64,000 nt of DNA, from contig NZ_JAMTCO010000007.1 in assembly GCF_024171925.1 (NCBI RefSeq), positions 310,001 through 374,000 on the forward strand, read 5' to 3'. The stretch comes from Actinokineospora diospyrosa (GTDB lineage Bacteria > Actinomycetota > Actinomycetes > Mycobacteriales > Pseudonocardiaceae). This document shows, one piece after another, positions 2,751-48,223 of this stretch (within the stretch, counting starts at the first letter, position 1; every line of letters begins with the position of its first letter). The notes below the pieces were generated by a model. That model did no database searches. It saw only the letters and a program-made list of their open reading frames with translations, and was not told the DNA's origin. Both the position numbers and the translations under genes were made by a program.

Positions 2751-3413
2751 ATGGCCCAGACACGCACAGAGGACTTCCGGCTCGATGACGGCCGTGCGCT
2801 GCGCCTCACCTACGCCGAACCGGACGGGGTGACCAGAGGTGGACTCGTGGTGCTGCACGAGGCCAGGGGGATCACCGAGACCACGACCGGCATGGTCGCG
2901 GGCCTCGCGGGCGAGGGCTGGTTGGTGGTTGTCCCGCACCTGTACCCGGGTGAGGCGGGGTCAGCCGAGATCGGGCACGACGAGGCGCGGGACAAGGTCA
3001 GCGGCCTGTCCGGCGAATCCGTGCTCGCCGCGACCGACATCGGGTTCGCCTGGCTGGCTGGCCACGGCCTCGCCGCGGACCGGATCGGCGTGATCGGCTT
3101 CGAACTCGGCGGCTCGGTCGCCCTCGTCGTCGCCGCCAGCCGCGACATCGGCGCGGCGGTCACCGTGTCCGGCGGCGGGATCCTGGAGCCGTTGTCCGAC
3201 GGGCTGCCCGCGCTGATCGAGGTCGCGGGCGAACTGCGGGTGCCCTGGCTGGGCCTCTACCGCGAAGACAGCGACGTGGCCACCGTCGAGAAGCTGCGCG
3301 AGGCCGCCGCCTCGGCCAAGATCGCCACCGACGTGGTCCGGTACCGGCCGGAGCCGGGCGCCCCCGAGGCCTGGGCGCGCGCCCTCAACTGGTTCGACGC
3401 CCACCTGCGGTGA
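2751..3413 (+). CDS. Dienelactone-hydrolase-like alpha/beta hydrolase with altered nucleophile
   Basis: 220 residues of the DLH family. An HEARG segment follows the first core strand (oxyanion/Glu region). The nucleophile elbow reads GFELGG near residue 118, where active DLHs have GFCxGG. The catalytic Cys is therefore replaced by Glu, and the protein may be a non-hydrolytic relative. The expected C-terminal His of the triad is also not obvious. The start is set at ATG 2751, where homology to the family begins. An in-frame extension upstream to 2604 looks non-coding. The stop overlaps the GTG start of the next gene (GTGA at 3410-3413), so the two are probably translated together. Confidence 0.7.
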   Translation: MAQTRTEDFRLDDGRALRLTYAEPDGVTRGGLVVLHEARGITETTTGMVAGLAGEGWLVVVPHLYPGEAGSAEIGHDEARDKVSGLSGESVLAATDIGFAWLAGHGLAADRIGVIGFELGGSVALVVAASRDIGAAVTVSGGGILEPLSDGLPALIEVAGELRVPWLGLYREDSDVATVEKLREAAASAKIATDVVRYRPEPGAPEAWARALNWFDAHLR

Positions 3414-4180
3414 GGATCGCATCGCTGACGCTGGTCGAGTTCGACCTGCTGTGGGAATCGCTCGGGCGCACCGACCGGCCGTACCCGCTCGACGTGCCCT
3501 CCTTCGGTGAGACCACCGACGACCGCGACCGCCTGCGCAAAGAGGTCATCGATGGCTTGGCGGCGCGCGGGTTGCACGACGGCACCGACCTCAACCGCGA
3601 CCTCGAGGACTCGCTGACCGTCCTCGCGCAGCACGAGTACAGCGTCGACGGGCTGCTCTCGGTCGGTCGCCACGTCCGGGTGCTCGGCGCGGGGCGCGGG
3701 AGCCGGACCGTGCTGGCCGTGCAGATGGGCGAGCGCATCCGCATCGGGCAGTTGCGCGGTGGCGCCATCGTCAGCGAGATCGTGGCACTGCTGCCCGACG
3801 CCGAACCCGGCCCGGGAACGGCGGTCACGCTGGCGAAGTCGGTCTTCCACAACGCGATAGACGCCTACGTCGACACCGGGTTCGCCGGGCTGGAGACCGC
3901 GCTGAACCAGGGCGGTGTGACCGGGCGGGACATGCGGACCATCGCGACCCTGGTCGAGAACTCGCGGCACGGCGGCGGCCAGATCGCGGCCAACAGCGTC
4001 GACCGGATGGGCAGGCGCACCCGCACCGACGTGGTGAACTGGTTCGACACGACCGCGGGCCGCTACTTGGCCCTGCCGACCAAGCGCGACGGGGTCGACT
4101 GGCTGACCCTGGCGCCCGCCGACACACCCAGGCTGTCCCAGCGGCTGCGGGACCTGGTCGACTCGGTCACCCCGCGCTGA
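3410..4180 (+). CDS. EspG-family ESX secretion-associated protein
   Basis: 256 residues similar to EspG, the cytosolic chaperone that binds PE/PPE-type substrates of ESX (type VII) secretion. Recognisable features are the LTLVEFDLLWESLG opening, alternating beta-strand and helix blocks, and the conserved R-I-G-Q-L/GG-A-I-V segment in the middle. The GTG start overlaps the preceding stop by four bases. No ecc, esx, PE or PPE gene is in the window, so it is an orphan whose secretion partner must be encoded elsewhere. Confidence 0.75.
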   Translation: MRIASLTLVEFDLLWESLGRTDRPYPLDVPSFGETTDDRDRLRKEVIDGLAARGLHDGTDLNRDLEDSLTVLAQHEYSVDGLLSVGRHVRVLGAGRGSRTVLAVQMGERIRIGQLRGGAIVSEIVALLPDAEPGPGTAVTLAKSVFHNAIDAYVDTGFAGLETALNQGGVTGRDMRTIATLVENSRHGGGQIAANSVDRMGRRTRTDVVNWFDTTAGRYLALPTKRDGVDWLTLAPADTPRLSQRLRDLVDSVTPR

Positions 4181-4868: not shown

Positions 4869-5633
4869 TCACGCCTCCCTAGTACGCACGGTCCGGCGCT
4901 CGATGCGCTTCTCGACGGCCTCTTCCGGGGTCAGCACCACTACGCGCTGCACGAAGATGCCCGGCAGGTGGATCTCACCCGGCGCCAGGTCACCCGGCTC
5001 AACCAACTCCTCGACCTCGGCGATGCTGATGCGGCCCGCCATGGCACACAGGGGGTTGAAGTTCTGCGCGGAGTCCCGGAACACGAGGTTGCCGTGCCGG
5101 TCGCCCTTCCATGCGCGGACAAGCCCGAAGTCGGTGGTGATGGACCGCTCAAGGACGTAGTCGTGGCCGTCGAACTCGCGGACCTCCTTCGCGGGGGAGG
5201 ACACGGCGACGTTGCCTGCGTCGTCATAGCGCCACGGCACACCGCCGTCGGCTACCTGGGTACCGACGCCCGTCCGGGTGAAGAAGGCGGGGATACCGGA
5301 GCCACCCGCGCGCAAGCGCTCGGCGAGCGTGCCTTGCGGAGTCAGCTCTACCTCGAGCTCCCCAGAGAGGTACTGCCGGGCGAACTCCTTGTTCTCGCCG
5401 ACATAGGAGCTCGTCATCCTGGATATGCGCTTCTCGCGCAGCAGCAGGCCAAGGCCCCAGTCGTCCACGCCGCAGTTGTTCGACGTGACCTGCAGGCCGG
5501 TGACGCCTTTCGCGAGCAGCGCCTGGATGAGCGCGCTCGGGATGCCGCAGAGACCGAACCCGCCGACGGCGAGGGTCGCGTTGTCCGGGATGTCGGCTAC
5601 TGCCGCCGCGGCGCTCGGGACGACTTTGTCCAT
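4869..5633 (-). CDS. scoA: 3-oxoacid CoA-transferase, subunit A
   Basis: 254 residues. It opens with MDKVVPSA and the GGFGLCGIP glycine-rich CoA-binding segment, and has the TSNNCG and [23 protein letters not shown] blocks typical of ScoA. ATG at 5633 begins the family match. The frame stays open far upstream by GC bias only. First gene of the scoA-scoB pair, divergent from the MprF-like gene 78 bases away. Confidence 0.92.
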
Positions 5634-5711
5634 GTGTGTGCCCCTCCTTCTGGGTGTGGCACCGGCGACTCTAGCGGGGCGGACCCGCTTGCCGATGTGT
5701 TCGAGATCGCC

Positions 5712-7496
5712 ATGAATCGCCGCCGGCCGGTGGGCGTGGACACTGTGCACGTGGGTGACGAGCAAGACGGCCGCCCGTCGCGGCCCAGGGTTGAGGGACG
5801 CCGGTGGCGGCCAAGTGATGAGCTGACGTTGCGGCTGCTGACGTGGTCGGCGCGCGTGGTGGGGTTGCTGGCCGTGGTCTCGGTCGTGCTGCCGGTCGGG
5901 CGGCGCAGATTGCGCGACACGATCGGTGGCTGGCTCGACCTGCCGACCGAGGCGACCGTCGCGGCGGGCGTCGTGGTCCTGGCCAGCGGCGTCATGCTGC
6001 TGATGCTCGCCACCGCCCTGCGCAGGCGCAAGCGCAGGGCCTGGCAGGTGGCGGTCGTGGTCACCGGCCTCATCGCGCTGGCCCACCTCGGCTGGCGCCA
6101 CGGCATCGGCTCCGGCGTCACCGCCCTCGTGCTGTGCGTCGCGCTGATCGGTACCCGCAGCCACTTCACCGCCAAACCCGACCCGGTGCACGGCAAGTGG
6201 CGGGCCGTGCGGGTCACCCTGCAGCTGTGGCTCGCCGGGTTCCTGGCGAACTTCGTGCTGCTCAGCACCACCCCGTCCCGCTTCACCGACAACGCGGGCC
6301 TGCTCGACCGGGCACTGCACGCGCTGCTCGCCCTGATCGGCGTCTCCGGCCCGGTGCAACCCGTGCCGTGGCTCGACGACCTCAGCGCCGCCATCGGCCT
6401 CGCCTTCGGCATCGGCGCGCTCCTGCTCGGCGGCTACTACCTGCTGCGGTCCGCCGAGCCCAAGCAGGGCCTGTCGCCGGCGGCCGAGAGCGGCCTGCGC
6501 GACCTGCTCGCCGCCCGCGGCGCCGAGGACTCGCTCGGCTACTTCGCGCTGCGCCGGGACAAGTCGGTCGTGTTCTCCCCGTCCGGCAAGGCCGCGGTGC
6601 CGTTCCGGGTCCTCGCGGGCGTGGCCCTGGCCTCCGGCGACCCGCTCGGCGACATCGAGGCGTGGCCGGGCGCGATCGAGGTCTTCCTCGCCGACTGCCG
6701 CGACAACGGCTGGGTCCCCGCCGTCATCGGCTGCTCGGAACGCGGCGCGACGGTGTGGGTCCGCTACGGCCTCGACGCGATCGAACTCGGCGACGAGGCC
6801 ATCGTCGACGTCCCCGGCTTCACCCTCGACGGCCGCTCGATGCGCGGCGTCCGGCAAGCCTGCGCCAAACTGCGCCGCGCGGGCTACGAGGTCACCGTCC
6901 GCCGCTCCGCCGACCTGGGCGAGGTCGAACGCGCCGAACTGACCACCCTGGCCGAGCACTGGCGCGGCACCGAGACCGAGCGCGGCTTCTCCATGGCCCT
7001 GTCCCGCCTGGCGGGCCCCGACGACCCCGACTGCGTCCTGGTCACCGCGGCCAGGGCGGGCGAGGTCACCGGCCTGCTCCAGTTCGTCCCCTGGGGCAGC
7101 GACGGCCTGTCCCTGGACCTCATGCGCCGAGACCGCGCCACCGGCGACAACGGCCTCAACGAACTGATGATCGCCGACCTCCTCGGCGCCTGCGCCGCCC
7201 TCGGCGTCACCCGCGTCTCGCTCAACTTCGCCGTCTTCCGAGCCGCCATCGAACGCGGCGGCCGCATCGGCGCGGGCCCCGTCGCCCGGCTCTGGGCCAA
7301 AGCCCTCCGCATTGGCAGCCGCTGGTGGCAGATCGAGACCCTCTACCGCTTCAACGCCAAGTTCGGCCCCACCTGGAACCCCCGCTTCCTGATCTTCCCC
7401 GCCGTCCGGGACCTCCCCCGAGTGGCCCTCGCCGCGATCGAGGCCGAGGGCTTCGGAGGCCGCCCACCAGCACTTTTGCGCGCCTTACGACGCTGA
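5712..7496 (+). CDS. MprF-like phosphatidylglycerol aminoacyltransferase (DUF2156)
   Basis: About 594 residues. A basic N-terminus is followed by six or so membrane helices (roughly residues 40-260). A cytosolic C-terminal domain of the MprF/LPG-synthase type (GNAT-like) runs from about 275 to 590. The [20 protein letters not shown] and [14 protein letters not shown] blocks are characteristic of this family. Such enzymes transfer lysine or alanine from aminoacyl-tRNA to phosphatidylglycerol, reducing negative surface charge. The MprF flippase half is shortened, as is common in actinobacteria. Unlike mycobacterial LysX, no lysyl-tRNA synthetase domain is fused. ATG 5712 is chosen because the frame upstream runs antisense to scoA. 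Confidence 0.85.
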
Positions 7497-7566
7497 CCGG
7501 GGGGCGTTTTGCCCTCCGTCGAGGCACCTGTGTAGTCTTACCTCCCGAGCGGCCACTGGGGCCCCG

Positions 7567-7656
7567 GGAGGCTTCGCCTAGTCTGGTCTATGGCGCCGCA
7601 CTGCTAATGCGGTTGGGGTTCAAAGCCCCTCCCGGGTTCAAATCCCGGAGCCTCCG
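7567..7656 (+). tRNA. tRNA-Ser (GCT anticodon)
   Basis: Folds as a class II tRNA. A 7-bp acceptor (GGAGGCT/AGCCTCC) is followed by a 5-bp anticodon stem CCGCA/TGCGG holding loop CTGCTAA. There is a long variable arm (GGGG...CCCC) and a T arm with TTCAAAT. Discriminator G at 7656; the 3' CCA is not encoded. Confidence 0.96.
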
Positions 7657-7691
7657 CTGTACATCCGGCCCGCCGGATGACAACTGAACAA

Positions 7692-7764
7692 GCGCCCGTA
7701 GCTCAACGGATAGAGCATCTGACTACGGATCAGAAGGTTAGGGGTTCGAATCCCTTCGGGCGCG
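7692..7764 (+). tRNA. tRNA-Arg (ACG anticodon)
   Basis: Acceptor GCGCCCG/CGGGCGC, D arm with AGCTCAACGGATAGAGC, anticodon stem TCTGA/TCAGA with loop CTACGGA, and T loop TTCGAAT. ACG is read as ICG after deamination by TadA, whose gene lies at 29114. No encoded CCA. Confidence 0.96.
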
Positions 7765-7861
7765 CGCGACGGCGACCCATGTCCACGGAAAGCGTGGACG
7801 TGGGTCGCTTGCGTTGCATCTGGGGGGCGACCCCCCAGGCCCCCACGGTGCGATCACTCTC

Positions 7862-7898
7862 GACCCAGCGTGGCTCGCTCGACCTTCGGTCGTCGCAT
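7862..7898 (+). repeat. 37-bp direct repeat, copy 1
   Basis: Identical to 8019-8055. Begins GACCCAGCGTGGCTCG and ends GTCGTCGCAT. It contains the small dyad CGACC-TTC-GGTCG, so a transcript would form a short hairpin. Confidence 0.9.
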
Positions 7899-8018
7899 TG
7901 GGTATGCGACGAATGGGCTATCGGCCCACGGTGCGGTGGCGGGGAAGGCGCGGAGCGGTGAGTTCGCGGAGCTTGCGTAGCGGACGAGAACCGCGAAGCG
8001 CCTGGACCACCAAGGGGG

Positions 8019-8055
8019 GACCCAGCGTGGCTCGCTCGACCTTCGGTCGTCGCAT
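8019..8055 (+). repeat. 37-bp direct repeat, copy 2
   Basis: Exact second copy of 7862-7898, 157 bases downstream in the same orientation. The start of a third, partial match (GCGCTGGG) follows at once. Confidence 0.9.
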
Positions 8056-8148
8056 CGGGGGGGCGCTGGGCGCTGGGGGTTGGGGGTGTGGGTGGGGACT
8101 TGGGGGAGTCCTTAGTAGACTGTTGGTGGCTACTTCTGGGGAGATTTG

Positions 8149-8904
8149 ATGGTCAGGTGGATGCTGCCCGTTGCCGTTGTGGTGGCGGGTTTGGCCCTTG
8201 TGGTCTGGGCGTTTGTTACAGCGCCGGGGTATGAGAGGTATCGCGAGAGTGCGGACTCCATGACGCCGACGATGACGCGGGGGGACTCGATCAAGGTGTT
8301 GGAGGTCGAGGGGGATCAGGTGCGGCGGGGGGACATCATCGTGTTCGCCCTGGGTGGTTGGCCGGATGATGAACCGGTCCAAGGGGGGAACCTGCTGATC
8401 AAGCGGGTCATCGCGGTTGGTGGGGACTCGGTGGCGGGTGATGACGACGGGGCTTTGACCGTTAATGGCAAGAGAGTCGTTGAGGACTACCTCTTTGACG
8501 AGGACCCCAGCTTGGCTCGTCCGTTCGCGGCTCAGGTGCCCGCAGGCACGGTGTTCGTCGCGGGGGACTACCGGAGTCTCTCCAGGGACTCCCGCATCTA
8601 CTCCGGCGAACCCGGCCAGGGCGGCATCCCCGTGTCCCTCATCGAGGGCGTCGTCGTTGAGGTTGCGGGAGAGCCGCTCAAGCCGACGACCGCGTTCACG
8701 GCGGCGGGGTTGGAAGGGGCGCCCACTGTCGACAAACCTGATCGTTCGGGGTGGCTGGCTGTGGGGACCGGGGTCTCCTTGGTGGGTGGGATCTGGCTGG
8801 TGGTTGTGCTGACCTGGCGCAGGCGGCCGGGGGCGCGGGGGCGGATGGTCGGTGAGGGAGGCGTCGGGGAGCCGCGTGCGGACGGCTCCCCGACGCTGGG
8901 TTAG
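8149..8904 (+). CDS. lepB: Type I signal peptidase (S26 family)
   Basis: 251 residues. An N-terminal membrane helix (residues 4-24) precedes the serine box DSMTPTM with nucleophile near Ser37. The lysine box LIKRVIAVGGD has its general base near Lys85, followed by the GDxRxxSxDSR substrate-pocket motif. A second hydrophobic helix near residues 200-222 anchors the C-terminus. It removes signal peptides from exported proteins on the outer face of the membrane. Start at ATG 8149, preceded by GGGGAG; the TTG just upstream is a weaker option. Outside the usual rplS-rnhB setting, so probably an accessory paralogue. Stop overlaps the convergent hexosaminidase stop by three bases. Confidence 0.88.
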   Translation: MVRWMLPVAVVVAGLALVVWAFVTAPGYERYRESADSMTPTMTRGDSIKVLEVEGDQVRRGDIIVFALGGWPDDEPVQGGNLLIKRVIAVGGDSVAGDDDGALTVNGKRVVEDYLFDEDPSLARPFAAQVPAGTVFVAGDYRSLSRDSRIYSGEPGQGGIPVSLIEGVVVEVAGEPLKPTTAFTAAGLEGAPTVDKPDRSGWLAVGTGVSLVGGIWLVVVLTWRRRPGARGRMVGEGGVGEPRADGSPTLG

Positions 8905-30109: not shown

Positions 30110-31039
30110 TCAGCAGAGGCGCCGGTCCGCCTGTACGGGCTTGTGGCCCCGTGGTTCGATGCCCGCCAGGTTTTCGGCGAAAGCTCGATCCCACCCGGCG
30201 CTGTCGGCGATGAAGTCGTCCACCGCGTCCGCCAGTTCCCGGCACAGGGCTGGGCTGTCGTTGCGCATGGCGATGCCGTAGCGCTCGTCGCTCATCGGGA
30301 AGCCGAACTGGTCATTGGCCCACGTGGCCGACTCCACTTTGGGGCCCGTGTCCCGCTCGTAGGCGCCCGCGCTGTACGCGCTCAGGATGGACTGGTCGGT
30401 GACCATGCCGGTGACGCTGAGGTCATCGGGGTTGTTGAACCGGTCGAAGCACTCCCGTTGGGTCGCGCGCACCGGGGTCTCATCGCTGCTCGGCACCGCG
30501 GACCTGCGGAGGTATTCCTCGGCGGTGGTTCCGATGGACGCGCACAGGAACTTGACCGTCCCGCGTTCGACGTTGACGCTCAGCAGATCCTTGATCTTGG
30601 CCCTGTTGAACATCACGCCTGAGACGTCGAGGAAGTACGGCCCGGCGAAGTCCAAGACGTCGCTGCGGGCCAGGTTGCCGTTCTCCGAGCTCTTGCCGTC
30701 CATCGAGTAGTTCGAGATGACCAGGTCGACCTTTCCGCTGACCAACCAGGGCTCGCGCTGACCAGGATCGAGGAACACCGGCTCCCAGGTGAAGCCGTAC
30801 CGGTCGGCGAGGTAGTCGGCCACGGCGACGTCGAAGCCGTACGGCCGCTCATACGTGCCCCTGTCCCATTTGCCGAAGCTCCACCCGGGCAGCCTGCCGT
30901 TGAACCCGATCTTGACGGTCTCGGGCAGCGACAGCAGGGCGGGGTTGACGAACCGATCGGCCACCACAGTGGACGCGACCGCGACAACGGCTGCCGCGCC
31001 GAGGGAGTACAGCCGAACGCGGAGCCGACGGGTGGCCAT
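30110..31039 (-). CDS. Membrane-tethered solute-binding domain protein (SBP_bac_3 type)
   Basis: 309 residues. Basic N-terminus and one hydrophobic helix (LYSLGAAAVVAVASTVVA) without a clear cleavage site or lipobox, then a periplasmic-binding type II domain. Its family 3 signatures are TVKIGFNGRLPGW, GFDVAVADYLADRYGFTWEPV and KVDLVISNYSMD. Family members bind amino acids, but no ABC permease or ATPase accompanies it. Its ATG overlaps the caspase-like stop (TGATG), so it is the third gene of an EACC1-caspase operon and is more likely a sensor than a transporter part. GGAAGGAAGG precedes the start. Confidence 0.8.
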   Translation of the reverse strand: MATRRLRVRLYSLGAAAVVAVASTVVADRFVNPALLSLPETVKIGFNGRLPGWSFGKWDRGTYERPYGFDVAVADYLADRYGFTWEPVFLDPGQREPWLVSGKVDLVISNYSMDGKSSENGNLARSDVLDFAGPYFLDVSGVMFNRAKIKDLLSVNVERGTVKFLCASIGTTAEEYLRRSAVPSSDETPVRATQRECFDRFNNPDDLSVTGMVTDQSILSAYSAGAYERDTGPKVESATWANDQFGFPMSDERYGIAMRNDSPALCRELADAVDDFIADSAGWDRAFAENLAGIEPRGHKPVQADRRLC

Positions 31040-32226
31040 CAGACCTTCCTTCCTGCTGCCGAGCGGTGCGTCACGCGTTCCGCGATGGCGCTGAGCACCC
31101 CGATCGCCGCACCTGCGATGACGGCGTGCGGCAGGTACCAGCCCGACCACCACAACGCCACGCCACTGGCCAGCGCGGTGATCAGGCCGGTCGAGATCGC
31201 CCACCAATCCGGCTGCCGCCGCCGGGCCAAGGTGATGGGGATCTGGGTGGGGCGACCGCCGTCGATGTCGTTCAGCACGCGCGAAGCCTCGCTGCTGACC
31301 AGCTTGCTGTCGTCGCTAAGAGCCTTGGTCAGCTCAGCGCGACTTGCCGCCTGAACGGCGGGGCTACCGGTCCGGTAGATGGCGCTCAACTCGCGAACAG
31401 CTTGCGCGCGGACGGTGTTGGTCTCGCTTTCCAGATCTTGCTGAACCTGCTCTGGCAGTGACCATGTGGCGCTGTTCGCCCGATTCCGTACCAGCGCTAG
31501 GTGCTCGATGCTGTCGGTCATGTGCTGATGCGGTGATGGGAGGTGGTTGTCGATGAGCGTCTTGCGCAGGTGGGGGAAGACCTTCGGCAGTGACAGCATC
31601 TCGCCCTGCCCCTCTATGCCGGTCGACAGCAACTCCAGCAACGTCCCGGTGAACGCTGTGTTCCGCTCGTTGCTGTGGAGCGCGACCGCGCGGTAGTTCT
31701 TGCCGACAGCGGTAAGGGTGTAGGCGCCCTTGACGCTGAGGAGGTGCTCGGCTTGCCCACCTAAGGACTCCCGCAGCGCCCTCCCCGCGAAGCAGGTGTC
31801 GACGATGACGATGGTGTTGTCCGCGGTGCTTTGGCGGATGGTTTCCCTTACGTCGTCGTAGGACAGGGCGTCCTGCCACCACCGCCGCTTCGACGTGTCA
31901 GTGCCCGGGAGGTAGATGTACAAGTTGTTCGCGTCGGGGTCTCTAGGCAGGGCATGTGCGGCGATGTAGACCAGCAAGACGTCCTGAGCTTGGTCGACAG
32001 CCTCATCGAGCCGCTCGAGGATTCGCGCGCTATTCGACTCGTCGACCAGTTGGGCGCAGTGCTCCCGGCGGAAGCCGCCGTTGTTCTCATCGACGAGCAC
32101 GTCGACCAGGTCGGCTATGTTGTGCCCGATCACCGGCAGTTGGCCGCCCGCTTCGGGATCGGTGTATTTCGTGGTCCCGATGAGGACAGCACGGGATAAC
32201 TCAGGATCGGGTAGGCGCATCGTCAT
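31039..32226 (-). CDS. Caspase-like (C14) protease with C-terminal membrane anchor
   Basis: About 395 residues. Residues 10-235 form the caspase/metacaspase fold: RAVLIGTTKYTD at strand 1, the catalytic His in VYIAAHAL near residue 91 (the usual G-H-G is altered to A-H-A) and the catalytic Cys in IVDTCFAG near residue 145. A helical region (240-320) follows, then two membrane helices near residues 335-380 and a basic tail. It overlaps the upstream EACC1-like gene by about 26 bases and couples to the downstream binding protein by TGATG. Predicted to be a membrane-bound effector protease of a conflict or cell-suicide system. ATG 32220 is an alternative start. Confidence 0.85.
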   Translation of the reverse strand: MTMRLPDPELSRAVLIGTTKYTDPEAGGQLPVIGHNIADLVDVLVDENNGGFRREHCAQLVDESNSARILERLDEAVDQAQDVLLVYIAAHALPRDPDANNLYIYLPGTDTSKRRWWQDALSYDDVRETIRQSTADNTIVIVDTCFAGRALRESLGGQAEHLLSVKGAYTLTAVGKNYRAVALHSNERNTAFTGTLLELLSTGIEGQGEMLSLPKVFPHLRKTLIDNHLPSPHQHMTDSIEHLALVRNRANSATWSLPEQVQQDLESETNTVRAQAVRELSAIYRTGSPAVQAASRAELTKALSDDSKLVSSEASRVLNDIDGGRPTQIPITLARRRQPDWWAISTGLITALASGVALWWSGWYLPHAVIAGAAIGVLSAIAERVTHRSAAGRKV

Positions 32227-32599
32227 CCCCGAAGAAGCTCGCGCCGGTAGCTCCACCGCTGACCGCAGGGGGCTCTGTGTCGCCCAGGAAGAACCGGACC
32301 AGCTCCGTGGGGTTGGTCGTCCGCTGGACCTTGAGCGTCCGGACCGTCCCCGAGGGGTCTTCCACGGTCAGCTCTAGATCTGTGTGGCGCTGGCGGTGTC
32401 GTTCAGCCAGGTAGCGATAGACGGAGTCGGCGACGAGTGGCGTGACCGCTATGGCTGCCGCGATGACCAGTTCGGCGCCGAGGGTTCCTACCTCTATAGG
32501 GCCAGGGCGGATGCGCACGCTGCCCCGGAGGTCCTCCTCGTTGCTCAGCCACCGCCACAGATCCGCGGTCTCCCCCTCCGCTGTGACAAGCAGGTGCAC
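32201..32599 (-). CDS. Effector-associated constant component EACC1-like protein
   Basis: About 132 residues. The L-L-V-x-x-E-G-E-x-x-x-L-x-x-W-L start, the G-x-L-G-A-E-L-V-I-A...VTPLV hydrophobic helix (about residues 40-60) and the later ELTVEDPSGTVRTLKV beta hairpin match the EACC1 family. That family was described next to caspase, trypsin and other effectors in actinobacterial conflict systems. GTG 32599 is chosen because AGGAG lies five bases upstream; GTG 32605 is possible. First gene of the operon EACC1-caspase-binding protein. Confidence 0.75.
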   Translation of the reverse strand: MHLLVTAEGETADLWRWLSNEEDLRGSVRIRPGPIEVGTLGAELVIAAAIAVTPLVADSVYRYLAERHRQRHTDLELTVEDPSGTVRTLKVQRTTNPTELVRFFLGDTEPPAVSGGATGASFFGDDDAPTRS

Positions 32600-32755
32600 T
32601 CCCACTCCTCTCCGTCATTGGAGATGTCGGGTCCGCTGGTCCACTGTTACGTTCGACACAGGGTCTCACGAAGATCGTTACCGGTGTTCCCGCCGCTGGG
32701 CGGCCCGCGCGTTCCGGTGCGGTAGAACTGGCCGGACACGGGGTCGAGGAGGTCG

Positions 32756-44621: not shown

Positions 44622-45881
44622 TTAGTGGAGGGCCGCGCGCATGTCCTCGGCGAGTTGGTCCAGCCTCCCGGGTACGCCCTCCACCCGGTCTAGGGCGCCG
44701 TGCAGGCTTTCTTGCATCAGGTCTGAGATGCGGTCGTATTGCGGGGTCTGCACGCGGTCTCGCGCGGTGATCAGGCTGCTGTGCAAGACGTCCAGGTAGG
44801 GGAACTTGCTGCGCAGTACGGGGTCGTCGTAGAGGCTCCGGACTGTGGGGGCGAAGCCGCCCTTGGCGAAGAGTTGTTGTTGTTCGTCTTTGTCTGTGTA
44901 GAACCGGATGAAGTCGCGGGCGGTCTCTTGGTGTTGTGAGCACGGCGAGATGGCCAGGTTCCACCCGCCGAGGGCGCTTGGGCCGGGGAGCGTGGTTACG
45001 CCTACCTGGTGCGCCACGGGGGAGGTCGGGCCGGTCACTATCGGGTAGATGTAGGGCCAGTTGCGCATGAAGAGTGCCTTGCCCGCTTGGAAGCGTTCGC
45101 GGCTGCGTTCCTCGTTGAACCCGGTGGCAGCGCGGGGGATCCACCCGTCGCGGAGGCCTCGGGCCAGGAGTTCTACGCCCTGTTTGGCTGCGGGGGAGTT
45201 GATGGTGATCTCGCCGTTGGTGGTCAGGTCGCCGCCTTGAGACCAGATCGCCTCTAGGGCGTTCACGGTCAGGCCTTCGTAGCGGGAGAGTTGACCAACG
45301 TAGCCGTCGATGTCGTAGATGGTTCGTAGTTCGTTGGCGGTCTCTGCTAGTTCGGTCCAGTTCGTCGGTGGCTTCTTGTGTTGCTGCTCCAAGAGGTCCT
45401 TGCGGTAGTACAGGAGGCCTGCATCCGTGCGTGCTGGGATCGCGTAGAGGGTGTCGTCCACTGTGGCGTTCTGTACCGGCACGTCCAAGAACTTGCCGAT
45501 GTCGAACTCGTCTGGGTTCAGCGGTAGCAGGTACCCGGCGCGGGCGAACTCGGCTGTCCAGACAGCGTCGACGGTGATGACGTCGTTGCAGCGGCCTCTT
45601 GCGCCGGGCAGGGCTCCGTCTTGGGCGGCGGCGACGAGGGATGCTCGGTGGGCGTCGGAGGAGGGGGATTGCTCGACGAAGGTGACCTGTTCCTTGGAGC
45701 CGCGGCGGTTGTTCCACCGCTCCACCAAGCGTTCCAACTGCTTGCCCTCGGTGTTGTCACGACCGTCCACGAATGTGATGGGGCCTCTGGCGTGTACGCG
45801 GTCGGCGTCGGGACGTTCGGTAGCGCAAGCGCCTGTCGCGACGAGCACGACGGCCAGGTAGGCGCAGCAGAGCTTGTTCAT
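44622..45881 (-). CDS. Extracellular solute-binding lipoprotein (family 1, sugar type)
   Basis: 419 residues. Signal peptide with a weak lipobox ending in Cys (VATGAC near residue 19). A family 1 periplasmic binding fold follows: ITFVDGRDNTEGKQLERLVERWN, VITVDAVWTAEFARAGYLLPL, LYAIPARTDAGLLYYRKDLL, MRNWPYIYP, GGWNLAISPCSQ. ABC sugar importers use such proteins, but no permease or ATPase is near. It starts two bases after the cyclase-vWA fusion gene and is therefore expressed with it, pointing to a sensing role. Confidence 0.88.
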   Translation of the reverse strand: MNKLCCAYLAVVLVATGACATERPDADRVHARGPITFVDGRDNTEGKQLERLVERWNNRRGSKEQVTFVEQSPSSDAHRASLVAAAQDGALPGARGRCNDVITVDAVWTAEFARAGYLLPLNPDEFDIGKFLDVPVQNATVDDTLYAIPARTDAGLLYYRKDLLEQQHKKPPTNWTELAETANELRTIYDIDGYVGQLSRYEGLTVNALEAIWSQGGDLTTNGEITINSPAAKQGVELLARGLRDGWIPRAATGFNEERSRERFQAGKALFMRNWPYIYPIVTGPTSPVAHQVGVTTLPGPSALGGWNLAISPCSQHQETARDFIRFYTDKDEQQQLFAKGGFAPTVRSLYDDPVLRSKFPYLDVLHSSLITARDRVQTPQYDRISDLMQESLHGALDRVEGVPGRLDQLAEDMRAALH

Positions 45882-45883
45882 CT

Positions 45884-48223
45884 CTACCCCCACAGTCCCA
45901 TCGCCACCAGGTTGGTCAGTTTCGCTGTGTCTTCCTCCACCGACGTCAGGTCGATGCAGGTGCCCTCTGTCGCCTTCGAGAGATCGCTCAGGTGCGCCAC
46001 CCGGCATCCCCCTGCTTGCAGGCTCACCACTATGAGCCGCGTAGCCCTCTTGTCCTGAGCGCTTACCTTCACCTTCAGCGCGGACTCGTCGATCTGGCTG
46101 GGAACAGCGGTAGCGGCATCGGTGAACATGACCAGTACGTCCCTACCGTCCACAGATGGGTCTGCCCGCAGTCGGTCTGTACCTGCCTCGAGCGCGTTGT
46201 AGACGTCAGAGTTGTTGCGGGACAACGGTAGGTCCGGGCTGGCCGCACTGCGGAGCGCTGATGTCTGTCCTGGGCCTAGCGGCACCACGTCCCTGACCCC
46301 ACCGCCGAAGGTCATCAGGCCGACCTCGTCCGCGTCGCTGAAATGCTGCAGCAGCCTGCGGACCAGTTCGGTCGCTGCCCGCACCCGCGTCCCCTGGACG
46401 AACGGCGCGCCCATCGTCGGCGCGGTGTCCACCGCGAACAGCACCCTCGGGTGCTGGCTGCCAAGCTCCGCCGCGTCCCGGACCTGGTCGAACGCGGTCA
46501 GTGGGCTGACCATCAGCTCAGCGGGCAAGGATGGCGCGGGACCTTCGTCGCGGCCGACCTGTCCAGAAGCGTCGCGAAAACCGTTGTTGCGCAGGAATGT
46601 CGTAGCGGTCGGGCTCAGCAGGTACGCGTAGAACCTATCGATCACCTGACTGCGCTGCCGGTGCTCGGGACGGTCTGTCCATCGCACGACAACGAACGGG
46701 TAGTCCTGGATGGGGGAATCCAGTTCGAGGTAGAGCGGGACCAGCCCTTCGGGACGCTGCGAGGACGCAGAGCAGTCGCTGCCCAAGGGCCTACCGCGGT
46801 TGTAGTCGAAGACTGCTTTCTCCGACACAAGTGCGGCCAACCGCCCGGGGGCGTCGCGCATCGCACACAGCAGGCTTCCGCTGTCCTTGCCTCTAGCGAA
46901 CGGGATCTCTCGCTCGGCCTTGTGCACTGTTAGCGCTACCGGATCGGTGCGCATCACGGTTGGCGTGAGCTGTGGTTCTCCCAACCGGTGCTGGTAGTAG
47001 GCGATGGTGGTGAGCATCCCGGCGCTGGAGTTGCTCACGTCCGGCCTGGTGATGGCCTTGGTCACGGCTGCCTGCGCCAGGGTCGGCCAGGAGATCCACT
47101 GCTGGTCGCCCGGGTGCAATGAGTCGACCATGCCGGGTGGGGTGGCGAGCACGATCGGGGATCGCGCAATCCCCGGCCGCGGTTCCAGGGTCGCGCCGAT
47201 ACCCGGCGACTTGGCCAGCTTGGTCCGCACGTGGTCGAGGTCGATCGTGCTGTCCGGCAGCCACACGTGCGGCTCCGGGCCGTGGTCGCGCAGGTCGATG
47301 CGCCCGGACCAACCCCGGCTGAGCGCCTCGACCGCGCCTAGGTAGGTATCGGCAACTACCAGCAGGCGAGCCTGCCTGCACCCGTTCTCATCGGCCTGGT
47401 TCGACTCCCGCTCGAAGTTCAACGCGAGTTGCCGCAGCGTCGGTGCCATCTCTGTTGAGGTGAGCACGTTGACCTGCACCGGGTTCGCGCACCGGGTATC
47501 CGGGGCGTTCGCTCCCGCCAAGAGGTTCGTGGTGGGGGCGACCAGGAGCAAAGCTGTTAGAACTACCGCCTGCCAACGTGGACGAGGAAGCCGGAGCGTG
47601 GGCAGCTTCGGCTTAGGCAGCCGCACTTTCGGTTTCGGCGAGGCGCGCCTGTTGGGATAGTCCGGGGTGCAGATCCACGCCTTGGTGTCGGTTTCCTTGT
47701 GTCGCACGGTGCAAGAGCGGTAGATCGTCGGATTCGCGGCGGGCTGATGCTTCACCACGTGTTCGTAGAACCAGTCCGACACTGCTAGCGCGAGAACGCC
47801 GGGGGAGTCGGCAAGAGCGTCGCGCAACGGTTGGGAATCCAGCAGCCGAAAGGCGTGGTTGAGGTCCCGGCCGTGCTTGCCGTTGTCGTCGCTGCCGACC
47901 TCACCGGCGTGGATCGCCACCCGTAGTCGCATCTGCGTTTCCGGGCCGTGATCGGCGTTGTGCTCGCGCAGCGCGGCAGCCAGTTCGTGCGGGAGGGAAG
48001 CCACCAGTTCCCGCTTCGGCAGGTCCGGGATGAGCAGGAACAGGCCGTCGCCACGGTCCTCGTGGTAGCCCCACGGGACTCTTGCCCTGCCGAGCGCGTG
48101 GCGCAGTGCGGCATAGAGGCCGTCACGCACCACCTTCTGGTGACGGTCGGTACGCCGGACGTCGCCGTAGCTCTCGACGTCGACGGCGAGAATGCTCGCG
48201 TGCTTGTCCTCAGAATGGGACAC
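45884..48223 (-). CDS. Nucleotide cyclase-like / TM / solute-binding / vWA fusion protein
   Basis: 779 residues. (1) Residues 8-180: class III cyclase-like domain with metal Asp in LAVDVESYGD, second Asp in RGDGLF, and the N-x3-R pair in LNHAFRLL. (2) A basic Pro/Lys linker and one transmembrane helix near 215-235. (3) About 245-570: extracellular binding-protein-like domain (VNVLTSTEMAPTLRQLALNFE..., FVVVRWTDR). (4) About 590-779: vWA domain whose MIDAS motif reads DTAPT instead of DxSxS. The parts suggest transmembrane signalling from an outside ligand to a cytosolic nucleotide messenger. GTG start with GGGAGCAGGGC ahead of it. Confidence 0.8.
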   Translation of the reverse strand: MSHSEDKHASILAVDVESYGDVRRTDRHQKVVRDGLYAALRHALGRARVPWGYHEDRGDGLFLLIPDLPKRELVASLPHELAAALREHNADHGPETQMRLRVAIHAGEVGSDDNGKHGRDLNHAFRLLDSQPLRDALADSPGVLALAVSDWFYEHVVKHQPAANPTIYRSCTVRHKETDTKAWICTPDYPNRRASPKPKVRLPKPKLPTLRLPRPRWQAVVLTALLLVAPTTNLLAGANAPDTRCANPVQVNVLTSTEMAPTLRQLALNFERESNQADENGCRQARLLVVADTYLGAVEALSRGWSGRIDLRDHGPEPHVWLPDSTIDLDHVRTKLAKSPGIGATLEPRPGIARSPIVLATPPGMVDSLHPGDQQWISWPTLAQAAVTKAITRPDVSNSSAGMLTTIAYYQHRLGEPQLTPTVMRTDPVALTVHKAEREIPFARGKDSGSLLCAMRDAPGRLAALVSEKAVFDYNRGRPLGSDCSASSQRPEGLVPLYLELDSPIQDYPFVVVRWTDRPEHRQRSQVIDRFYAYLLSPTATTFLRNNGFRDASGQVGRDEGPAPSLPAELMVSPLTAFDQVRDAAELGSQHPRVLFAVDTAPTMGAPFVQGTRVRAATELVRRLLQHFSDADEVGLMTFGGGVRDVVPLGPGQTSALRSAASPDLPLSRNNSDVYNALEAGTDRLRADPSVDGRDVLVMFTDAATAVPSQIDESALKVKVSAQDKRATRLIVVSLQAGGCRVAHLSDLSKATEGTCIDLTSVEEDTAKLTNLVAMGLWG

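What the first reader, a model, noticed from the sequence alone, without database searches (positions are those of the whole stretch)
44622..48223. Cyclase-like/TM/binding-protein/vWA fusion with a partner binding lipoprotein
A single 779-residue protein joins a cytosolic class III cyclase-like domain (both metal Asp and the N-x3-R pair kept) through one membrane helix to an extracellular binding-protein-like domain and a vWA domain with a degenerate MIDAS (DTAPT). The next gene, two bases away, is a family 1 sugar-binding lipoprotein with no ABC transporter. This looks like a one-component receptor that converts an outside ligand into a nucleotide signal, possibly using the lipoprotein as co-receptor. 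I know of substrate-binding-plus-vWA proteins in actinobacteria, but a cyclase in the same chain is uncommon. The residue at the usual Lys base-specificity position seems to be Glu, which could favour GTP.
Basis: partly seen in the sequence, partly recalled or inferred. Interest (0 to 1): 0.78.

Follow-up and report, generated by a model that had tools for sequence, protein, structure and literature searches.

The report
Modular two-gene bacterial cyclase receptor
In soil actinobacteria a pair of neighbouring genes probably builds a sensor that spans the cell membrane: binding parts outside, a cyclic-nucleotide-making enzyme inside; relatives keep the outside parts but carry a protein-cutting enzyme or an adaptor inside instead, as in proposed bacterial immune and cell-death systems.

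Summary
One 779-aa frame (45884-48223, minus) encodes a class III cyclase domain, one TM helix, a type II binding-protein domain and a vWA domain with a broken MIDAS. Two bases on lies an SBP_bac_1 lipoprotein (44622-45881), with no transporter genes among the flanking genes tested. AlphaFold/Foldseek put the N-domain with Cya2 and Ma1120. Asp15, Asp59, Arg126 and Lys176 are kept in 35 of 35 distinct cyclase rows; the base pocket is Glu55/Gly115/Phe125, close to the Glu/Gly/Tyr of guanylyl cyclases.

The fusion is not a one-off. All 20 fetched family relatives have the lipoprotein next door. Elsewhere in the class the same ectodomain-lipoprotein pair occurs with a caspase (behind an EACC1-type gene), a trypsin (behind Trypco2 in two of three) or EAD1 instead of the cyclase. 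Ectodomains without the lipoprotein form a separate branch.

Best reading: a modular transmembrane receptor, constant outside pair, swappable signalling domain inside, from the conflict-system network of Kaur et al. 2020; this is its cyclase branch. Catalysis, ligand and role are inferred. New variant of a known kind; I found the lipoprotein partner and the swapping in no text searched.

The parts
45884..48223 (-). Receptor gene, 779 aa: cyclase - TM - SBP_bac_11 - vWA
   Evidence: full-length relatives
47654..48205 (-). Class III nucleotide cyclase domain (residues 7-190); Asp15, Glu55, Asp59, Gly115, Phe125, Arg126, Lys176
   Evidence: AlphaFold pLDDT 92.8; Foldseek Cya2 2w01_A E 2.3e-9 and Ma1120 EGY mutant 5d0h_A E 2.6e-8; residue counts; profile alignment to Ma1120
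47516..47575 (-). Single transmembrane helix (residues 217-236) behind a Lys/Arg/Pro-rich linker
   Evidence: Hydropathy; helix in model (low confidence in this stretch)
46538..47500 (-). Extracellular type II binding-protein domain (residues 242-562), EPHVWLPD-type motif, Cys245/Cys282/Cys453 invariant in 21 rows
   Evidence: Pfam; alignment; Foldseek sulfate-binding 5um2 E 3.1e-10
45887..46501 (-). vWA domain (residues 575-779), MIDAS degenerate (DTAPT 599-603), Cys740/Cys756 invariant in 21 rows
   Evidence: Pfam; alignment; Foldseek BatB 3ibs_A E 9.3e-9; MIDAS comparison
44622..45881 (-). Partner SBP_bac_1 lipoprotein, 419 aa, probable lipid Cys19 (kept in 90% or more of 21 rows); sugar-pocket positions kept
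   Evidence: Pfam; alignment; PDB relatives MalE3 6dtq and trehalose/maltose-binding 1eu8; pocket counts

Best explanation
The two genes encode a transmembrane receptor. Outside, the SBP-vWA ectodomain and the neighbouring binding lipoprotein act together. The lipoprotein probably captures an alpha-glucoside-type sugar and docks on the ectodomain. Binding changes the spacing or dimer state across the single TM helix. That brings two cytosolic class III cyclase domains into a productive dimer, which makes a cyclic nucleotide (cGMP or a cAMP/cGMP mixture) that intracellular readers turn into a response. The pair is the cyclase branch of a modular actinobacterial receptor family with a constant ectodomain-lipoprotein pair and a swappable inside domain (cyclase, caspase, trypsin, EAD1). 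It therefore most likely reports on the envelope or on a biotic challenge and belongs to the conflict/regulated-response network rather than to nutrient uptake. Shown: architecture, folds, conserved catalytic-site residues, conserved gene pair, different inside domains on the same outside pair. Inferred: complex formation, ligand class, catalysis, product, and conflict role.
For: Lipoprotein next door in 20 of 20 fetched cyclase-type loci and in 17 of 60 fetched class-wide ectodomain loci: nine caspase-like, three trypsin-like, one EAD1, two cut by contig ends, two with no recognised inside domain. Receptor and lipoprotein distances correlate at r 0.94 over 38 pairs, 0 of 2000 permutations as high. 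The 42 ectodomains in the tree without a lipoprotein neighbour form one side of a 100/99 branch. Cyclase fold and site; D15, GDG58-60, R126, K176 in 35 of 35 rows. Lipoprotein pocket positions 21 of 21 in cyclase-type partners. The best-scoring own-genome paralogue has two ABC permease genes beside it; no transporter gene was found beside the window gene. Ten cNMP-binding-domain places in the own genome could be readers. Inside domains and companions (caspase, EACC1, trypsin, Trypco2, EAD1; a related cyclase domain in one frame with EAD1 and TIR in L146) are parts named in PMC7159879 (against 47, 54, 61, 85, 86).
Against: No activity, ligand or interaction has been measured. The transition-state Asn is kept in only 9 of 35 rows. 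The cyclase-type vWA lost its MIDAS (DxSxS in 0 of 21, against 17 of 17 in the other paired forms) and is shortened in 13 of 20 relatives, so it may be a passive spacer. Correlated distances also arise from common descent. The pocket residue Trp307 of the lipoprotein is replaced in the caspase, trypsin and EAD1 partners, so the forms need not share a ligand. The EAD1 rows group weakly with the unpaired ectodomains (95/59) and with transporter-type lipoproteins (91/83), so a single origin of the pair is not shown. No EACC1-type gene was found beside the cyclase form. Flanking genes are not effectors. The site is the same in the five genus relatives that have the pair, so ordinary sugar sensing is not excluded.
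Confidence: 0.57

Rival explanations
1. Ordinary nutrient sensor: the lipoprotein and ectodomain report an external alpha-glucoside and the cyclic nucleotide controls carbon metabolism, with no conflict role.
For: Lipoprotein closest to maltose/trehalose-binding proteins with pocket positions kept in 21 of 21 cyclase-type partners but Trp307 replaced in the caspase, trypsin and EAD1 forms; cNMP-binding-domain proteins in the genome; same chromosomal site in five genus relatives.
Against: Same kind of outside pair is coupled to caspase, trypsin and EAD1 in relatives, an odd output for nutrient control; no sugar genes among the flanking genes scanned; present in only 6 of 16 genus genomes.
Confidence: 0.28
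2. The N-domain is a nucleotide-binding but catalytically dead cyclase relative that relays conformation to another protein.
For: Asn122 not conserved; Pfam does not recognise the domain; Kaur et al. describe inactive cyclase domains on the vWA component of some systems (PMC7159879, passage).
Against: Both metal Asp, Arg126 and Lys176 in 35 of 35 rows and Glu55/Gly115/Phe125 in 32/34/31 of 35; active Ma1120 itself lacks the Asn (PMC4215837, passages).
Confidence: 0.15
3. The extracellular SBP-vWA is a deployed effector released by the inside domain, the position that Kaur et al. gave to TM-linked PBP domains, not a sensor.
For: PMC7159879 section 33 lists TM plus extracellular PBP among variable C-terminal domains read as effectors.
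Against: Here the ectodomain-lipoprotein pair is the constant part and the inside domain the variable part; a cyclase cannot cut anything free.
Confidence: 0.1

Closest known systems
EACC1 two-gene conflict system (System 4 of Kaur et al. 2020, PMC7159879)
   Same: Inside domain caspase or, less often, cNMP cyclase; TM plus extracellular PBP reported among the C-terminal parts; the nine caspase-type relatives found here have an EACC1-type gene directly upstream (a model built from three of them finds those three and the other six, L095 weakly)
   Different: No EACC1 gene found beside the cyclase form; a vWA follows the PBP; a binding lipoprotein follows as the next gene; ectodomain constant, inside domain variable
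Class III guanylyl/adenylyl cyclases Cya2 (2w01) and Ma1120
   Same: Fold, both metal Asp, Arg, and a Glu/Gly/aromatic base pocket (the Cya2 Tyr from PMC4215837 passages)
   Different: 16-20% identity to these two in the structure alignments shown; transition-state Asn not a family feature; fused to a TM-SBP-vWA ectodomain
Maltose/trehalose ABC importer binding proteins (MalE3, TMBP, LpqY)
   Same: Lipoprotein sequence and pocket positions
   Different: No permease or ATPase gene among the flanking genes scanned; neighbour is a receptor
Plain actinobacterial TM-SBP-vWA proteins
   Same: Ectodomain layout
   Different: No lipoprotein neighbour in the 43 fetched loci so classed; MIDAS motif found in 35 of 45 frames; separate branch

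Membership tests
Class III nucleotide cyclases | Cyclase-homology fold | tested here: met
   pLDDT 92.8; the 50 PDB matches shown (of 821 at E<=10) are all class III cyclase structures
Class III nucleotide cyclases | Two metal Asp and transition-state Arg | tested here: met
   D15, D59, R126 in 35 of 35 rows
Class III nucleotide cyclases | Transition-state Asn four residues before the Arg | tested here: inconclusive
   Asn122 is present in the window protein, but in only 9 of 35 rows; Ma1120 also lacks it and is active (PMC4215837, passages)
Class III nucleotide cyclases | Cyclic nucleotide formation | not testable with these tools
   Needs an enzyme assay
EACC1 conflict system (System 4) | EACC1 gene directly 5' of the caspase/cyclase gene | tested here: not met
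   No gene called in the gap to the monooxygenase gene; nearest own-genome EACC1 at window 32291-32578. In the caspase-type relatives the upstream gene matches an EACC1 model made here in 9 of 9 (three of them built it); Pfam EACC1 passes its cut-off in 2 of 7 tested
EACC1 conflict system (System 4) | N-terminal caspase or cNMP cyclase plus variable C-terminal part, TM-PBP included | tested here: met
   against PMC7159879 section 33
ABC importer binding lipoprotein | SBP_bac_1 fold and sugar pocket | tested here: met
   Sequence-based; no model of the lipoprotein was made
ABC importer binding lipoprotein | Permease/ATPase genes in the operon | tested here: not met
   None among the flanking genes scanned, against two permeases beside the own-genome paralogue L202
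Metal-dependent vWA adhesion domain | DxSxS MIDAS | tested here: not met
   DTAPT; 0 of 21 cyclase-type rows keep DxSxS, one (L039) has DTSAT

The most novel reading that the evidence does not exclude
Actinobacteria carry a family of bacterial death- or immune-receptor analogues: a conserved extracellular pair (SBP-vWA ectodomain plus sugar-binding-type lipoprotein) senses envelope damage or a foreign glycan and drives an interchangeable intracellular output, namely a cyclase, caspase, trypsin or EAD adaptor. The window pair is the branch that answers with a cyclic nucleotide.
Probability: 0.38. Interest if true: 0.85.

Novelty: new variant of a known kind. Interest (0 to 1): 0.64.

Why it matters
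How the caspase- and cyclase-bearing conflict systems of multicellular bacteria sense anything outside the cell is open. A constant ectodomain-lipoprotein pair wired to interchangeable inside domains gives a concrete, testable receptor: a ligand found for one form gives a handle on the caspase, trypsin and cyclase versions alike, even if each branch has tuned its own ligand. It would also give a natural design for coupling sugar-binding proteins to a cyclase.

Tried and rejected
Missed frameshift or fused neighbouring genes: rejected, full-length relatives in one frame.

No cyclase fold: rejected. Family N-x3-R pair: rejected, Asn kept in 9 of 35 rows.

Anti-phage system in the PADLOC library: no match for either protein at E<=1. 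NCBIfam gave none for the receptor and only matches far under the cut-offs for the lipoprotein.

Uncharacterised cyclase-like family of PMC4886424 (outline and abstract seen): the family named in its outline (DUF2652) did not appear in our Pfam scan; not pursued.

EACC1 beside the cyclase form: not found. My narrow EACC1 model (built from L092, L094, L106) rang at those three and the six other caspase loci (L095 only weakly, E 3.8e-5) but missed the window's own Pfam-confirmed EACC1 at 32201-32605, so its silence at the cyclase loci is weak evidence; the own-genome Pfam search and the bare gap are better. Trypco2 was found upstream of two of three trypsin forms, not of L096. RNA fold of the 5' region: z -1.59, not remarkable. 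Promoter/terminator scan: nothing useful.

One origin of the pair: not shown; the EAD1 rows sit weakly with unpaired or transporter-type rows.

The claim that the lipoprotein partner and the swapping are not in print rests on searches of open-licence papers, and on 'lipoprotein' occurring in PMC7159879 only in its reference list. Figures and supplements of that paper were not seen.
Full report
What is there. The finding's coordinates are correct. The minus strand carries a 779-aa gene (45884-48223) and, two bases after its stop, a 419-aa gene (44622-45881, from the ATG chosen here). Pfam finds SBP_bac_11 (46.4 bits) and VWA_2 (39.3 bits) in the first and SBP_bac_1 (98.5 bits) in the second; it does not recognise the N-domain. 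One hydrophobic stretch at 217-239 separates the inside from the outside part.

The N-domain is a class III cyclase. AlphaFold on 21 family sequences gives pLDDT 92.8. The 50 PDB matches shown are all class III cyclase structures, led by an artificial phytochrome-cyclase and the guanylyl cyclase Cya2 (E 1.3e-9 to 3.4e-9), with Ma1120 chains, among them the Glu/Gly/Tyr mutant, next. A profile of the family matches that mutant sequence (28.7 bits) better than wild-type Ma1120 (19.6 bits). In 35 distinct domain rows from the loci then held (30 in receptor-sized frames, five in other proteins), D15, G58-D59-G60, R126 and K176 are kept 35 of 35, E55 32, G115 34, F125 31, N122 only 9; the E55 and G115 exceptions are all in the five other proteins. 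E55, G115 and F125 sit where Ma1120 has K101, D157 and A167; PMC4215837 (passages) reports that the change of these three to Glu, Gly and Tyr raised guanylyl activity and left the enzyme impartial between ATP and GTP. So GTP use is likely but not settled. That paper also reports that Ma1120 lacks the transition-state Asn and that putting Asn there abolished activity, so loss of Asn122 in relatives does not argue for a dead enzyme.

The outside part. The full model (pLDDT 84.6) matches sulfate- and molybdate-type binding proteins in its SBP part and BatB-type vWA structures. MIDAS decay is specific to the cyclase form: DxSxS in 0 of 21 cyclase-type proteins (L039 has DTSAT), 17 of 17 other paired forms, and 35 of 45 unpaired frames, by motif search (the window's own duplicate locus L172, which that script printed with the unpaired group, is left out; at least two of the ten unpaired misses, L134 and L135, are short proteins in which no vWA was found). 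In 13 of 20 relatives the vWA is also shortened, so metal binding is not its job here.

The pair is conserved. Of 390 genomes of the family, 208 have some match to the protein; most of the rows listed cover the cyclase domain alone (list cut). Thirty of the listed genomes, the own included, have a match reaching well past the TM (my count, a lower bound). I fetched 20 of the 29 relatives; all 20 have the lipoprotein as next gene on the same strand. In the genus the receptor is in 6 of 16 genomes. In the five relatives it lies at the same site beside the luciferase-like monooxygenase and dnaX. All ten genus genomes without it keep that monooxygenase, and the stretches fetched around it hold no copy at 40% identity or more (in L163 only 2.7 kb of the relevant side was available). 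In L162, where most flanking genes are 88-99% identical, the interval holds an integrase fragment, a radical-SAM gene, an ATPase and a kinase-like gene instead (named by eye), so this is a variable site.

The inside domain differs. A profile of the ectodomain found matches in 122 of 394 genomes drawn evenly from the class. I fetched 60 stretches around listed places, long frames first, so this is not a random sample. Seventeen of 60 have the lipoprotein next door. Their inside domains: nine caspase-like (Pfam Peptidase_C14 over its cut-off in 7: L093, L094, L095, L098, L099, L104, L106; L100 below it; L092 by motif only); three trypsin-like (L109 and L110 over the cut-off, L096 below it); one EAD1 (L087); two cut by contig ends (L088, L097); two without a recognised domain (L103, L108). 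Directly upstream of the caspase forms lies an EACC1-type gene (a model built from three finds those and the other six, L095 weakly; Pfam over the cut-off in 2 of 7 tested). Upstream of L109 and L110 lies a Trypco2 gene, not upstream of L096. Of the 43 loci without the lipoprotein, L101 (phosphorylase) and L111 (helix-turn-helix) carry an inside domain; the others were not scanned with Pfam, and I saw no domain in those printed. No fetched class locus had the cyclase as inside domain (the cyclase model rang only at the separate proteins in L108 and L146), so the cyclase form is so far seen in one family.

Trees. In a 74-row ectodomain tree the 42 rows without a lipoprotein are one side of a 100/99 branch; the 15 cyclase rows are one clade (99/95), as are the trypsin (3) and EAD1 (2) rows, and the nine caspase rows form a clade with the contig-cut L097 (six cyclase rows dropped by hand, one short row, L141, and the second frames of L112 and L137 left out). 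The lipoprotein tree (45 rows; five cyclase rows dropped by hand, 12 of the transporter-type rows kept) has the same cyclase, caspase-plus-L097, trypsin and EAD1 groups. The EAD1 pair is placed weakly in both: with unpaired ectodomains (95/59) and with transporter-type lipoproteins (91/83). Pairwise distances of ectodomain and lipoprotein correlate at 0.94 over 38 pairs, 0.94 in the 21 cyclase pairs and 0.965 in the 17 others, 0 of 2000 permutations as high; shared descent alone can give this, so it shows co-inheritance, not contact.

The lipoprotein. Among its best solved relatives are MalE3 (282 bits), the trehalose/maltose-binding protein 1eu8 (230 bits) and LpqY (171 bits). Positions R79, D105, D153, E257, R273, W275, G305-G306-W307, R376 and Y382 are 21 of 21 in the cyclase-type partners; W307 is Gln, Asn or His in the caspase, trypsin and EAD1 partners. 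PMC7949145 (passages) lists Asp80, Asn134, Glu241, Trp259, Gly334 and Arg404 among the LpqY residues that hold trehalose; that my positions correspond to these is my reading from motifs, not a computed superposition. The best-scoring own-genome paralogue (4 of 47 candidates were scored; 37% identical) sits beside two permease genes; none was found beside the window gene. Transporter-type proteins score higher with the cyclase-type model (about 330-414 bits in those fetched) than the caspase-type partners do (about 180-225), so one origin of all partners is not shown.

Mechanism. Shown: architecture, folds, site residues, conserved pair, different inside domains on the same kind of outside pair. 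Inferred: lipoprotein-ectodomain docking, sugar ligand, dimer-driven cyclase activation, cyclic nucleotide product, and a conflict or stress role. The conflict reading rests on the company: caspase, trypsin with Trypco2, EAD1, and EACC1, the parts named by Kaur et al. (PMC7159879; section 33 read in full, other passages by find). Those authors mention TM plus extracellular PBP among parts read as effectors; here the outside pair is the constant part, which fits a sensor better.

Novelty. The kind (cyclase or caspase plus TM-PBP in actinobacterial conflict systems) is in print. The lipoprotein partner, and the same pair across cyclase, caspase, trypsin and EAD1 forms, I did not find in searches; figures and supplements were not seen.

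Noticed in passing
window 30110-32605 (-): A second, separate unit in the same window: an EACC1 gene (32201-32605, Pfam 49.6 bits), a caspase-like gene (31039-32256, by motif only; Pfam gives just a weak HEAT_2 match) and an SBP_bac_3-type gene overlapping its end (30110-31042, 37.4 bits). A binding protein again follows a conflict-type protease.
   Followed up: partly
L108:3110-8537: A paired receptor without recognised inside domain (4973-7117, +) plus lipoprotein (7104-8537, +), with a stand-alone protein of the same cyclase family on the opposite strand next to it (3110-4021): a possible split version.
   Followed up: no
L146:8535-11999 (-): A cyclase domain of this family in one frame with EAD1 (two stretches) and a TIR domain; its pocket residues differ.
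   Followed up: no
L101:6872-10072; L111:4495-6828: Unpaired SBP-vWA proteins carrying a nucleoside-phosphorylase-type (L101) or helix-turn-helix (L111) inside domain, no lipoprotein neighbour.
   Followed up: no
L162:7062-10181: In the relative G008 the receptor site holds an integrase fragment, a radical-SAM gene, an ATPase and a kinase-like gene instead (named by eye): a variable accessory site.
   Followed up: partly
L005: An own-genome paralogue of the cyclase domain has an in-frame TAG in the matched stretch and Ala at the Glu55 position: possibly a decaying copy.
   Followed up: no
L044-L056: In these 13 relatives, most from one other genus, the pair lies beside a conserved gene family of about 920 aa and shared further neighbours, a different site from Actinokineospora.
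   Followed up: no
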